From an uncultured Pelagibacteraceae bacterium (lineage in GTDB: Bacteria; Pseudomonadota; Alphaproteobacteria; Pelagibacterales; Pelagibacteraceae): a stretch of DNA of 64,000 nucleotides. The translations under genes were made by a program, and so were the position numbers. Where the stretch lies: assembly GCA_902571525.1 (NCBI GenBank), contig CACGCL010000001.1, positions 1 to 64,000 of the forward strand, given 5' to 3'. This document shows, in pieces, positions 33,018-40,171 of the stretch; position 1 is the stretch's first letter; each line of letters starts with the position of its first letter. The notes under the pieces were generated by a model that worked only from the letters and a program-made list of their open reading frames with translations, was not told the origin of the DNA and searched no databases.

Positions 33018-33734
33018 TTATGATAATTTTGATCTTCCACCATCTACACCTATTATCTGACCAGTTATCCACGAGCTGTCATCAGATAATAAAAATTGCG
33101 CCATTGCAGCTGCATCTTTTCCTTCACCAACTCTTTTCATAGGGTGAGCTTTAGCCACACCTTCTGCAATTAATTTATTTTTTAATATTGGTTCAGCTAT
33201 TTTGGATTTAGTTAAACTAGGTGCAATACAGTTAACCCTTATATTAGGAGCAAACTCTGCTGCTAAAGATACTGTTAGTCCCTCGATTGCACCTTTCACA
33301 GATGCAATAATACTATGATTGGTAAATCCTCTCTGAACAGCTACTGTTGAAAACATAACTATAGAACCTTTATTTTTTTTCAAATTATCTTGAAAATTTT
33401 TAATGGTCTCAACTATTGGAAAAAAATTTAAATCAAAGCATTTTATAAAATCATCTTTTTTAACAGCACGAATAGGTTTGAGATCAATAGAGCCAACGCA
33501 ATAAGCAATTCCTGAAATATCTTGTCCTTCAAATTCATTTTTTAAATTTTTAATAGATTGTTCATTTAAAACGTCAACAACACTATATTTACAATCAAGT
33601 TCAGATGATAATGATTTTAGACCATTTTCATCTCGACCTAAAAGTCGAACATCTTGATTTCTGCTAACCATCAACTTTGCTAGGTTCGAACCGATAGAAC
33701 CTGTCGCACCAAAAATTAAATATTTTCCTGACAT
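33018..33734 (-). CDS. SDR-fold protein lacking the catalytic Tyr
   Basis: 238 residues. The NAD(P) loop GATGSIGSNLAK (9-20) and the C-terminal NCIAPSLTKSKIAEPIL and SSWITGQIIGVDGGRS are classic SDR features. At the active site Ser129 (FSTVAV) and Lys147 (ASVKGAIEG) are present, but the residue four before the Lys is Ile143, not Tyr; His140 is nearby. I recall similar Tyr-less SDRs beside cryptochrome/photolyase-like genes elsewhere, and here the photolyase-related gene is divergent only 28 bases away. Function unknown; it may bind a nucleotide without normal dehydrogenase chemistry. Confidence 0.88.
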   Translation of the reverse strand: MSGKYLIFGATGSIGSNLAKLMVSRNQDVRLLGRDENGLKSLSSELDCKYSVVDVLNEQSIKNLKNEFEGQDISGIAYCVGSIDLKPIRAVKKDDFIKCFDLNFFPIVETIKNFQDNLKKNKGSIVMFSTVAVQRGFTNHSIIASVKGAIEGLTVSLAAEFAPNIRVNCIAPSLTKSKIAEPILKNKLIAEGVAKAHPMKRVGEGKDAAAMAQFLLSDDSSWITGQIIGVDGGRSKLS

Positions 33735-33762: not shown

Positions 33763-35256
33763 ATGAAATTATTTATTATACTTGGAAATCATTTATTTCC
33801 ATTAAAATACCTAAATCGCTTCAAAAAAGACCATCTTTTTTTTATGGCAGAGGATAATGGTCTATGTACTTATGAAAAACATCACAAACTTAAAATCCTG
33901 TTATTTTTGTCATCAATGAGATCTTTTTTTGATAATTTAAAAAAAAATAACTTCAAAATAACCTATTCTAAGATCGATGACGCTGCTTTTAAAGAAGATT
34001 ACCTTTTAAAAATCCAAAAAATTTTAAAAAAAAATAAAATTAATGAAATTTCATGTTTTGAAATTGAAGATAAGCCAATTGAAAAAAAAATTATAGATTT
34101 TTCTAAGAAGAATAAAATAAAACTTAATATAATTACATCTCCAATGTTTCTTAATACTAGAGATGATTTCAAAAAATATTTATCGAAATCAAAGAAACCA
34201 TTTATGGCAGTTTTTTATAAAGAAACTAGAAAGAAGATGAACATTTTAATGAATGGTGAAGATCCTGTTGGTGGAAAATGGAGCTTTGATGAGGACAATA
34301 GAAAGAAACTACCAAAAGGAACTAAAGTTCCATCTTTCCCTAAAATAAATGAGACATTTCATACAAAAAATTTAAAAAACATTATAGAAAAGAAATTCTC
34401 AACACATCCTGGTTCAACGAAAAATTTCTGGTTTGCAACCGAACATAAAGATGTTCTTAAATTATTAGAGTTTTTTATAAAAGAAAAATCTAATTTATTT
34501 GGTGATTATGAGGATGCAGTTGATCAAAATAATAATATATTATTTCATAGCGCTCTCAGTCCTTACATAAATTTAGGTTTAATAACTCCAGAAATAATTA
34601 TTGAGAAAATTTTGGAAAGTCATAAAAAAAAAAAAATCAGAATAAATTCTTTAGAGGGATATATAAGACAGGTAATTGGTTGGCGAGAATTTATGAGAGG
34701 AATATATCAAAATTTCTATAGCAGATTGGAGACTGGTAATTTTTTTAAACATAACCGCAAAATGAAATCTACTTGGTATGAAGGAAAAACAGGCTTGCTA
34801 CCTTTAGACTATGCTATCAAAAATGCGAATGACCATGGTTGGTCACATCATATAGAAAGATTAATGATTTTATCTAATATTATGAATCTTTGTGAAGTTA
34901 AACCGATATATGTTTACAAATGGTTTATGGAAATGTTTGTTGACTCATCTGATTGGGTAATGTCTCCAAACGTTTATGGAATGGGATTGTTTAGTGATGG
35001 AGGAATTTTTGCTACTAAACCTTATATTTGTGGATCAAGTTATTTTCTTAAAATGATGGACTTTAAAAAAGGTGAATGGTGCAACATTATGGATGGTCTT
35101 TATTGGAGATTTATAAATAAGAATAGATCTTTTTTTTTAAAAAATCCAAGATTATCAATGATGGTAAGAATATATGACAAAATGAATGCCCCAAGAAAAA
35201 AAGTTATATTAGCTGCGGCTGATAAGTTTATAAAGGAAAACACTAATGCCAGTTAA
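33763..35256 (+). CDS. Cryptochrome/photolyase-related flavoprotein (DPRP/PhrB-like), Fe-S cysteines absent
   Basis: 497 residues. The N-terminal antenna-like domain starts FIILGNHLFPLKYL with HHKLKILLFLSSMR (about 40-53). The FAD domain has YIRQVIGWREFMRGIYQ (300-316), GWSHHIERLMIL (359-370) and WVMSPNVYGMGLFSDGG (398-414). Bacterial PhrB-type enzymes bind a [4Fe-4S] cluster with four Cys; at the matching places this protein reads TGLLPL and MDFKKGEWCNIMDGLYW, so the set is missing. Cys377, 423 and 440 exist but in a different layout. It heads a run of overlapping genes. Light-driven (6-4) repair or signalling is inference. Confidence 0.88.
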   Translation: MKLFIILGNHLFPLKYLNRFKKDHLFFMAEDNGLCTYEKHHKLKILLFLSSMRSFFDNLKKNNFKITYSKIDDAAFKEDYLLKIQKILKKNKINEISCFEIEDKPIEKKIIDFSKKNKIKLNIITSPMFLNTRDDFKKYLSKSKKPFMAVFYKETRKKMNILMNGEDPVGGKWSFDEDNRKKLPKGTKVPSFPKINETFHTKNLKNIIEKKFSTHPGSTKNFWFATEHKDVLKLLEFFIKEKSNLFGDYEDAVDQNNNILFHSALSPYINLGLITPEIIIEKILESHKKKKIRINSLEGYIRQVIGWREFMRGIYQNFYSRLETGNFFKHNRKMKSTWYEGKTGLLPLDYAIKNANDHGWSHHIERLMILSNIMNLCEVKPIYVYKWFMEMFVDSSDWVMSPNVYGMGLFSDGGIFATKPYICGSSYFLKMMDFKKGEWCNIMDGLYWRFINKNRSFFLKNPRLSMMVRIYDKMNAPRKKVILAAADKFIKENTNAS

Positions 35257-35617
35257 AGTTTTTTTTAATAATTCTTGTAATATTTGTAAACTCGAAATTG
35301 ATCACTACAAAAAAAATTCTGATGAAAATTTAGAATGGGTTGATATTACAAACAATCAACAAGCAGTCGACTTAACATCAAAATCTAAAGAAGAACTTCT
35401 AAGAAGATTACATGTGATAGACAATGGACAAGTTATCGGAGGAGCTAAAGCATTTATAATTATCTGGTCAAAAATACCAAAATATAATTTTTTAGCGAAA
35501 ATTTTAAGTTTTAAACCTCTGTTTATCTTATTTCATTACGCTTATGAATTTGTAGCTTATTTTTTATTTTTAAAAAACAAACACCAACTTAATGAAAAAA
35601 CAAAACCTACCAACTAA
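35246..35617 (+). CDS. DUF393 (DCC family) thiol-disulfide oxidoreductase-like protein
   Basis: 123 residues. The N-terminal motif [19 protein letters not shown] (residues 4-22) keeps the CxxC of the DCC family, with Asn-Asn where Asp-Gly is usual. A hydrophobic C-terminal region (about 90-112) could associate with the membrane. It overlaps the photolyase-related gene by eleven bases and the DUF2256 gene by twenty-six, so all three are tightly coupled. DUF393 genes are often found near photolyase-like genes; the chemistry is unproven. Confidence 0.87.
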
Positions 35618-37845: not shown

Positions 37846-38988
37846 TTAAGAAAAGTTTGAAATAATTTTTGGAATGTAATTTTTAAAATTAAAAAACCCT
37901 TTATTACAATATTGCCAAGAATACTGATCAAGTTTTCTATATAAAAAATTTATTTTTAAATTATTCAAATTCAGATAATCTAAGTTTTCACCGATAGTCG
38001 GATACAATCCAATATTTTTTTCATCAATTTTTTTAATTTCACTTATATCAATTATTTCACAATCAATTGATAGCTCTTTTAACCTTTGTTCTTGATCGGT
38101 AAATAAAAGTTGCTTAAATTTTGCTACTTTTTCACTAAGTTTGATTGATCTATTTTCATTTTTGTTAGAGACTAAATATATCTTTTCAAATTTACTATTT
38201 CTAAAGTCAGTGAATTCAAAAGAGAGATTATTATCAAAAATTAATAAATTATTTGTTTTAATATCTTCAGGATTTTTAAAATCTTTTTTTATTATTGAAT
38301 AGTTTTTTTCTAAAATTTTTGGAGTAGCATTTTTATTTAATTTAATATTATGAAATCTGTTATTAGTAAATTTTTTGATATTCCACTCGCTTGCTAAATA
38401 ATGTTTTCCTTGTGTTTGAACTCCCGCAACCCATCTCCATCCAAGAGTATTAGATGCAGCGTCACCATCATAAAGATGTTGCATAAAAAATTCTGCACCT
38501 AGTTGCCAAGGTAAATCAAGTGTAAAAATCCAAATACTAGCAAACCACATTCTTGTATGATTATGAAGGTAGTTATTAACTTTTAACTCATTCACCCATT
38601 CGTTAAAGCAATCTATATTAGTTTTACCCTCAACCGCATTTTGATAATTTCTATCTTTTTTAAAATTTTCTTTAATATTTGTTAGTTCAATTAAATAGTC
38701 GCTCCAAACATTTGGTCTTAATTCTAACCATCCTTTCCAGTAAGTTCTCCAGAGCACTTCCTGTATGAATTTTTCATTTTTTGAAAAAGAAAACTTATCT
38801 AGCGATTTTTTTATAATTTCAATTTCATTAAGAACACCATGAGTGATATAAGGAGATAAGCATGAAACATTATCCCTTTTATCAGGACCAAAATCAAAGT
38901 TTCTTAGCCTTGAATAATCTGATAAACTTTTTTCTATAAAATTATTTAATTTATTTATAGCTTTTGATCTCTCAGGTTCAAAATTCAT
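37846..38988 (-). CDS. Photolyase-family flavoprotein with the FAD domain first
   Basis: 380 residues. The N-terminal ~220 residues are the alpha-helical FAD domain of the photolyase/cryptochrome family: SCLSPYITHGVL (42-53), EVLWRTYWKGWLELRP (77-92), NYLHNHTRMWFASIWI (139-154) and DGDAASNTLGWRWVAG (174-189). The usual N-terminal antenna domain is absent. Instead ~135 residues follow (246-380) that look like alternating strands and helices (LLIFDNN, KIYLVSN, CEIIDIS), possibly a permuted antenna domain. DNA repair is plausible but not shown. It lies just upstream of argG on neither operon axis: eight bases after argG's stop side lies its start, in the opposite order of transcription (it follows no gene on its own strand but argG upstream ends far away). 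Confidence 0.87.
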   Translation of the reverse strand: MNFEPERSKAINKLNNFIEKSLSDYSRLRNFDFGPDKRDNVSCLSPYITHGVLNEIEIIKKSLDKFSFSKNEKFIQEVLWRTYWKGWLELRPNVWSDYLIELTNIKENFKKDRNYQNAVEGKTNIDCFNEWVNELKVNNYLHNHTRMWFASIWIFTLDLPWQLGAEFFMQHLYDGDAASNTLGWRWVAGVQTQGKHYLASEWNIKKFTNNRFHNIKLNKNATPKILEKNYSIIKKDFKNPEDIKTNNLLIFDNNLSFEFTDFRNSKFEKIYLVSNKNENRSIKLSEKVAKFKQLLFTDQEQRLKELSIDCEIIDISEIKKIDEKNIGLYPTIGENLDYLNLNNLKINFLYRKLDQYSWQYCNKGFFNFKNYIPKIISNFS

Positions 38989-38995
38989 ATGATTT

Positions 38996-40171
38996 TTATC
39001 TTAATTTTTTTTTATGGAAATTAATAAATTTTTCAACATTAGATTTATTAAAAGTTTTATTATCTTCAAAAGAAACTTTTTTTATGGAGTATGCATTACT
39101 TTTTGTTATTCTTGACTGAATTGTAATATTTCCTTTGTAAAGTTTAAGCTTAATAATCCCGTTTACCTTGTTTCTTTTAAGATCCACAATCTTTTGCAAT
39201 TTTAATCTTTCTTTTGAAAACCAATAACCATTGTAAATTAATTCAGCATATCTTGACATAATCGAATCTTTTTTATGCATTGTATTTTTGTCTAATGTCA
39301 CCGACTCTATTGCTCGATGAGCAATTAAAAGCAATGTTCCCCCAGGAGTTTCGTAAACACCCCTAGACTTTATTCCTATAAATCTATTTTCAACTAGATC
39401 AACTCTGCCAATTCCATTTTTACCAACTAATTGATTTAATTTTTCTAAAAGTTTTTCTGGTGTTAATTTCTTTCCATTAACACTAATTGGGTCACTATTT
39501 TTAAATTTAATTGATACAAATGCAGGTTTATTAGGAGCTTTTTCAGGTGAGATCGTTCTTTGAAAAATAAATTCTGGAGCTGAATTTTTTGGATTTTCTA
39601 AAACTTTACCTTCGGTTGAAGTATGAAATAAGTTGTCATCTACCGAAAAAGGTGGTGCACCCTTCTTATCTTTTGGAATTGAAATGTTATGCTTTTTTGC
39701 GTATTTGATTAGATCAGTTCTTGATTTCAATTTCCAAATTCTCCATGGAGCTATTACTTTTATTTTTGGTCCAAAATAGTGATATCCCAGTTCAAATCTC
39801 ACTTGATCATTTCCCTTCCCCGTTGACCCATGCGAAACTGCAAATGCTTTAAATTTTTTTGCAACTTGAATTTGGTCTTTTGCAATTAAAGGTCTCGCAA
39901 TAGATGTACCTAGTAAATAGACTCCTTCATAAATAGCGTGACCTCTTATCATTGGGAAAACGTAATCTTTTACAAATGTATTTTTAAGATTTTTTATAAT
40001 TATTTTTTTTACTCCTAGTTTTTTTGCGTTTTTTATAATTTCTTTTTTATTCATTTCCTGACCGATGTCGGCCGTATATGCGATTACTTCAGCTTTATAA
40101 TTTTCCTGAAGCCATTTAAGAATTATAGATGTATCTAGACCGCCTGAGTAAGCTAAAACTATTTTTTTCAT
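38996..40171 (-). CDS. argG: Argininosuccinate synthase
   Basis: 391 residues, nearly full length (usually ~400). ATP-pyrophosphatase loop VLAYSGGLDTSIILKWL (5-21), GKGNDQVRFELGY (about 118-130) and the substrate-binding SVDDNLFHTSTEGKVLE are present. It condenses citrulline and aspartate, the penultimate step of arginine synthesis. Its stop is seven bases before the photolyase start on the same strand, so the two could be co-transcribed. It lies 21 bases after the IalB-like gene. Confidence 0.97.
   Translation of the reverse strand: MKKIVLAYSGGLDTSIILKWLQENYKAEVIAYTADIGQEMNKKEIIKNAKKLGVKKIIIKNLKNTFVKDYVFPMIRGHAIYEGVYLLGTSIARPLIAKDQIQVAKKFKAFAVSHGSTGKGNDQVRFELGYHYFGPKIKVIAPWRIWKLKSRTDLIKYAKKHNISIPKDKKGAPPFSVDDNLFHTSTEGKVLENPKNSAPEFIFQRTISPEKAPNKPAFVSIKFKNSDPISVNGKKLTPEKLLEKLNQLVGKNGIGRVDLVENRFIGIKSRGVYETPGGTLLLIAHRAIESVTLDKNTMHKKDSIMSRYAELIYNGYWFSKERLKLQKIVDLKRNKVNGIIKLKLYKGNITIQSRITKSNAYSIKKVSFEDNKTFNKSNVEKFINFHKKKLR

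What the first reader, a model, noticed from the sequence alone, without database searches (positions are those of the whole stretch)
37846..38988. Photolyase with swapped domain order
The protein starts with the FAD-binding helical domain (motifs at residues 42-189) and carries about 135 extra residues at the C-terminus with alternating strand/helix character. Ordinary photolyases have the alpha/beta antenna domain first. A circularly permuted or re-acquired antenna domain would be a new architecture for the family.
Basis: inference. Interest (0 to 1): 0.55.

Follow-up and report, generated by a model that had tools for sequence, protein, structure and literature searches.

The report
SAR11 inverted-domain photolyase (NewPHL type)
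This gene from an abundant ocean bacterium encodes a light-driven DNA-repair enzyme whose two domains are in reverse order, an arrangement first described in 2020 (the NewPHL photolyases), so it is a real but already known kind of protein.

Summary
The ORF at 37846-38988 (-) is an intact 380-aa photolyase that begins with the FAD domain and ends with a separate alpha/beta domain. No antenna domain was lost upstream: an in-frame stop lies five codons before the ATG, and argG ends 7 nt before it. The same full-length architecture occurs in at least 80 SAR11 loci, in 48 of 60 sampled genomes of the family, and across Alphaproteobacteria. Profile comparisons link it to the alpha/beta domain of (6-4) photolyases and, more strongly, to a short antenna-like partner protein that itself matches the ordinary antenna domain. 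In the structure search, (6-4) photolyases have the highest probabilities, although no hit is significant by E-value. The claim of a new architecture is wrong. It is the NewPHL class (Emmerich et al. 2020; Phr7 of Prochlorococcus), N-terminal FAD domain plus C-terminal Z-domain, reported to repair cyclobutane dimers in single-stranded DNA. A second inverted type (Phr4/5/6) was reported in 2022. CPD-contact residues and a tryptophan dyad are kept. Verdict: new SAR11 member of a known class, with some added evidence on the Z-domain's origin.

The parts
37846..38988 (-). NewPHL-type photolyase gene, 380 aa, inverted domain order
38344..38988 (-). N-terminal FAD/catalytic domain, residues 1-215 (Pfam FAD_binding_7 at residues 74-198, profile 1-127/203); CPD contacts E77, W80, N143; N180 next to FAD; Trp dyad W161/W184 (third triad Trp replaced by N108)
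38278..38343 (-). linker, residues 216-237
   Evidence: between the two domains
37849..38277 (-). C-terminal Z-domain, residues 238-380: Rossmann-like alpha/beta domain (strands at 247-251, 270-274, 310-314, 325-328, 347-350) plus conserved tail R351..D354...W358.....GFFNFK..IP
   Evidence: profile links
38996..40171 (-). argG-like argininosuccinate synthase gene, 7 nt upstream of the photolyase ATG; found near it in 78 of 80 loci (7-38 nt away, or separated by a ~900-nt insert holding two small genes), so probably co-transcribed
   Evidence: function named from sequence

Best explanation
The gene encodes the SAR11 NewPHL: a FAD-dependent photolyase that most likely repairs cyclobutane pyrimidine dimers, probably in single-stranded DNA, under blue/UV-A light. 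The N-terminal helical domain holds FAD, takes in the dimer and donates an electron from FADH-. Photoreduction of FAD uses a two-tryptophan chain (W184, W161). The C-terminal Z-domain is a displaced, shortened relative of the alpha/beta antenna domain. It takes the place of the last ~75 positions of the usual FAD domain and of the N-terminal antenna domain, and it probably seals the FAD pocket. Shown here: architecture, conservation, clade, retained residues, and profile-level kinship of the Z-domain to antenna domains. Inferred: CPD specificity, ssDNA preference and FAD sealing (from the literature on NewPHL in Dinoroseobacter and Methylobacterium, and from residue conservation).
For: Domain order and intact ORF. 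Full-length relatives throughout SAR11 (80 loci; 48/60 genomes) and other Alphaproteobacteria. They form one clade with 100/100 support, separate from class I, FeS-type and Phr4/6-type proteins. E. coli residues map as E274->E77, W277->W80, N341->N143, N378->N180, W382->W184, W359->W161, W306->N108; E77, W80, N143, N180, W161 and W184 are invariant in 13 diverse relatives. The tryptophan dyad agrees with the dyad reported for D. shibae NewPHL (PMC8948257). Literature: NewPHLs repair CPDs in ssDNA with inverted topology (PMC13274461); Phr7 is an N-terminal FAD domain plus C-terminal Z-domain and lacks Fe-S cysteines (PMC9426592).
Against: No sequence of a characterised NewPHL (A8LJA9, M7YZC8, Q2N8F4, B6IPR5) could be compared directly; the nearest named homologues here are from Ruegeria, Novosphingobium, Asticcacaulis and Peteryoungia. 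The primary paper is not held. The AlphaFold model of the FAD half is poor (pLDDT mostly <50), so domain packing and FAD sealing could not be seen. E. coli R342 is replaced by H144.
Confidence: 0.9

Rival explanations
1. The C-terminal domain is not an antenna relative but an unrelated Rossmann/HUP-like domain recruited independently to cap the FAD pocket.
For: Direct similarity to the class I antenna is weak (20% probability, 0.5-19% in jackknife subsets). Foldseek gives no E<0.001 and mixes photolyases with many other Rossmann proteins. The Usp control also scores 75% against the Phr5-like family over 58 columns.
Against: The Z profile reaches 42-86% against DPRP, always collinear over the whole domain, while column-shuffled and reversed controls stay at 0.3% or less. 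Z against the Phr5-like family is 91-94% and Phr5-like against class I antenna 96.6%. In Foldseek the (6-4) photolyases have the highest probabilities (up to 0.97) and TM-scores (0.49-0.55).
Confidence: 0.2
2. The protein belongs to the Phr4/5/6 kind of inverted photolyase (predicted Fe-S (6-4) photolyase) rather than to NewPHL.
For: Same domain order; that group lies next to NewPHL in the tree (94/76).
Against: No Fe-S cysteine motif of the kind seen after the FAD motifs in the Phr4/6-like proteins (e.g. Deinococcus YCAGCPL...CPF). NewPHL is a separate 100/100 clade. The C-terminal domain is not recognised by PF00875, whereas a Deinococcus fused form gives a weak hit (E 7e-4).
Confidence: 0.04
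3. The protein has lost repair and acts as a light or redox sensor (cryptochrome-like).
For: SAR11 already carries a class I-like photolyase (L082) and a DPRP-type (6-4) photolyase, so a third photolyase could be free to change role.
Against: CPD-contact residues E77, W80 and N143 are invariant; characterised NewPHLs repair CPDs.
Confidence: 0.06

Closest known systems
NewPHL photolyases (Emmerich et al. 2020, NAR 48:12845; D. shibae and M. mesophilicum proteins) and Phr7 of Prochlorococcus (PMC9426592)
   Same: N-terminal FAD domain, C-terminal Z-domain, no Fe-S cysteines, Trp dyad; alphaproteobacterial relatives in one clade
   Different: SAR11 lineage; 380 aa against 383-411 aa in most other alphaproteobacterial relatives aligned here; activity untested
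Phr4/Phr5 and Phr6 inverted photolyases of marine Synechococcus/Cyanobium (PMC9426592); similar split and fused genes found here in Alphaproteobacteria and Deinococcus
   Same: FAD domain first, alpha/beta domain second; adjacent in the FAD-domain tree
   Different: They carry a CxxC...CP motif, their alpha/beta part is closer to the ordinary antenna domain, and they are often two genes
Prokaryotic FeS (6-4) photolyases (PhrB/CryB, Pfam DPRP), e.g. 4dja, 3zxs, 9hnk
   Same: Their alpha/beta antenna-side domain is among the closest structural and profile matches of the Z-domain
   Different: Opposite domain order, Fe-S cluster, (6-4) specificity
Class I CPD photolyase (E. coli PhrB, 1dnp)
   Same: Catalytic domain residues 200-395 align with residues 3-197; CPD-contact residues kept
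   Different: Antenna domain N-terminal, Trp triad, complete FAD_binding_7 domain

Membership tests
NewPHL | N-terminal FAD-binding photolyase domain | tested here: met
   FAD_binding_7 at residues 74-198; PDB photolyases align from residue 3
NewPHL | C-terminal Z-domain, no N-terminal antenna domain | tested here: met
   alpha/beta domain at 238-380, in-frame stop just upstream of the ATG; identity with the published Z-domain not compared letter by letter
NewPHL | Trp dyad instead of triad | tested here: met
   W306->N108, W359->W161, W382->W184; dyad in D. shibae NewPHL per PMC8948257
NewPHL | Monophyly with characterised NewPHL proteins | tested here: inconclusive
   One 100/100 clade with other alphaproteobacterial FAD-first proteins incl.
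NewPHL | No Fe-S cysteine motif (reported for Phr7) | tested here: met
   no CxxC...CP motif in P0001; PMC9426592
NewPHL | CPD repair specific for single-stranded DNA | not testable with these tools
   needs an enzyme assay; CPD-contact residues conserved
Phr4/5/6 inverted photolyase | Conserved Fe-S cysteines | tested here: not met
   motif present in Deinococcus and alphaproteobacterial Phr4-like proteins, absent in P0001
Class I CPD photolyase | N-terminal PF00875 antenna domain | tested here: not met
   no PF00875 match; FAD domain at the N-terminus

The most novel reading that the evidence does not exclude
The Z-domain is a degenerate antenna domain, and inverted photolyases arose once, through a stage in which the FAD half and the antenna half were two neighbouring genes in FAD-first order (Phr4/Phr5-like) that later fused (Phr6-like) and, in the NewPHL branch, lost Fe-S cysteines and antenna features. 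SAR11 would then carry a streamlined product of a split-and-refuse domain swap.
Probability: 0.45. Interest if true: 0.45.

Novelty: new member of a known kind. Interest (0 to 1): 0.27.

Why it matters
It shows that one of the most abundant groups of ocean bacteria, with very small genomes, keeps three different photolyases, including the inverted type reported to act on single-stranded DNA. The profile chain from Z-domain through the Phr5-like partner to the ordinary antenna domain gives a testable origin for the inverted topology. The inversion itself is not new.

Tried and rejected
Lost upstream antenna or frameshift: rejected, because stops and argG lie immediately upstream. Single-genome artefact: rejected. 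Chance Rossmann similarity: tested with Usp, HEM4 and response-regulator profiles and with column-shuffled and reversed profiles; similarity to DPRP and Phr5-like proteins stands out, direct similarity to the class I antenna alone is not robust. Phage-borne copies: none confirmed in viral contigs. The full-length AlphaFold model was too poor in the FAD half to study domain packing; the last job went to the Z-domain alone. Foldseek gives no E<0.001, so the fold match rests on probability and TM-score only. The single Persicobacter C-terminus gave no profile signal. The primary NewPHL paper is not in the library.

Full report
What is there. The ORF at 37846-38988 (-) is intact, 380 aa, in a SAR11 genome (relatives named Pelagibacteraceae at up to 94% identity). 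FAD_binding_7 matches residues 74-198, profile 1-127 of 203, and solved photolyases align from residue 3 with their catalytic halves. So the catalytic domain starts at the N-terminus and lacks the last third of the usual Pfam domain. The remainder (about 238-380) matches no Pfam or NCBIfam model above threshold. An in-frame stop lies five codons upstream of the ATG and argG ends 7 nt upstream, so no antenna was lost.

Conservation. All 80 SAR11 loci retrieved carry the same architecture end to end. In 60 sampled genomes of the family 48 have it, counted at E<1e-90; one of these, G436, is in two pieces with a stop. Full-length relatives of about 385-410 aa occur across Alphaproteobacteria, including Ruegeria, Novosphingobium, Asticcacaulis and Peteryoungia plasmid genes annotated only as 'FAD-binding domain-containing protein'.

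Catalytic residues. On the phmmer alignment to E. coli photolyase, E274, W277, N341, N378, W382 and W359 map to E77, W80, N143, N180, W184 and W161, while W306 maps to N108. E77, W80, N143, N180, W161 and W184 are invariant in 13 diverse members. From established photolyase biochemistry (own knowledge), E274, W277 and N341 contact the cyclobutane dimer. The dyad agrees with the report for D. shibae NewPHL (PMC8948257).

The C-terminal domain. AlphaFold gives an alternating strand/helix domain with five strands. With the Z-domain model as query, Foldseek hits with the highest probabilities (0.96-0.97) are (6-4) photolyases and bacterial cryptochrome B (8ijy, 9hnk, 9q8f, 3zxs; TM 0.49-0.55 over 122-128 columns), though no E-value is significant. 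Profile comparison (34 members) gives 82.5% probability against the DPRP domain of FeS (6-4) photolyases, collinear over the domain, and 20% against class I antenna; Usp, HEM4 and REC controls give 6, 0.8 and 0.3%. Jackknife subsets give 42-86% for DPRP; shuffled and reversed controls give 0.3% or less.

A bridge. Shorter FAD-only relatives in Alphaproteobacteria are mostly followed directly, with a 4-nt overlap or a gap of up to ~30 nt, by a ~131-153-aa gene (L110, L111, L263, L264, L265); L266 shows no such partner. One Deinococcus plasmid has the same split pair (FAD part 257 aa, partner 173 aa, 4-nt overlap), and three others have the two parts fused in FAD-first order; the one scanned has a weak PF00875 match in its C-terminal part. 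This matches the Phr4/Phr5 and Phr6 genes of marine picocyanobacteria (PMC9426592). The partner family scores 96.6% against the class I antenna and 91-94% against the Z-domain. So the Z-domain is most likely a displaced antenna-type domain, in ordinary strand order, moved as a whole. A caveat is that Usp also scores 75% against the partner family over 58 columns, so part of the signal may be shared HUP-like fold.

Tree. On the FAD domain, the NewPHL-like proteins form one branch with 100/100 support, next to the Phr4/6-like proteins (94/76, not a strong branch), with class I and FeS types separate.

What is known. [quoted passage not shown] The primary paper, Emmerich et al. 2020 (doi 10.1093/nar/gkaa1147), is not held; that the C-terminal domain seals the FAD site is recalled from its abstract and was not tested here. 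The claimed new architecture is therefore already described.

Context. The same window holds a DPRP-type (6-4) photolyase gene at 33763-35256 (+), overlapping a DCC1-like gene, and the genome has a third, class I-like photolyase.

Noticed in passing
33763-35256 (+): DPRP (FeS type) (6-4) photolyase gene, 497 aa, 2.6 kb from the NewPHL gene; in several SAR11 loci the two lie close together.
   Followed up: partly
35246-35617 (+) and 33018-33734 (-): A DCC1-like thiol-disulfide oxidoreductase gene overlaps the end of the (6-4) photolyase gene, and an SDR gene lies divergently next to its start; the SDR arrangement recurs in relatives, suggesting a photorepair gene group.
   Followed up: no
38996-40171 (-) and L026:3162-3994: argG is kept upstream of the NewPHL gene in 78 of 80 loci, either 7-38 nt away or (with one exception) separated by a ~900-nt insert with two small, probably membrane, protein genes.
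   Followed up: partly
L110, L111, L263, L264, L265, L269: Split inverted photolyases outside cyanobacteria: a FAD-only gene followed by a ~131-173-aa antenna-like gene, usually with a 4-nt overlap, in Alphaproteobacteria and Deinococcus (Phr4/Phr5-like).
   Followed up: partly
L271:1290-2888: Halorubrum plasmid with a 129-aa gene annotated photo-lyase directly followed by a FAD-binding gene: a split photolyase in the ordinary order.
   Followed up: no
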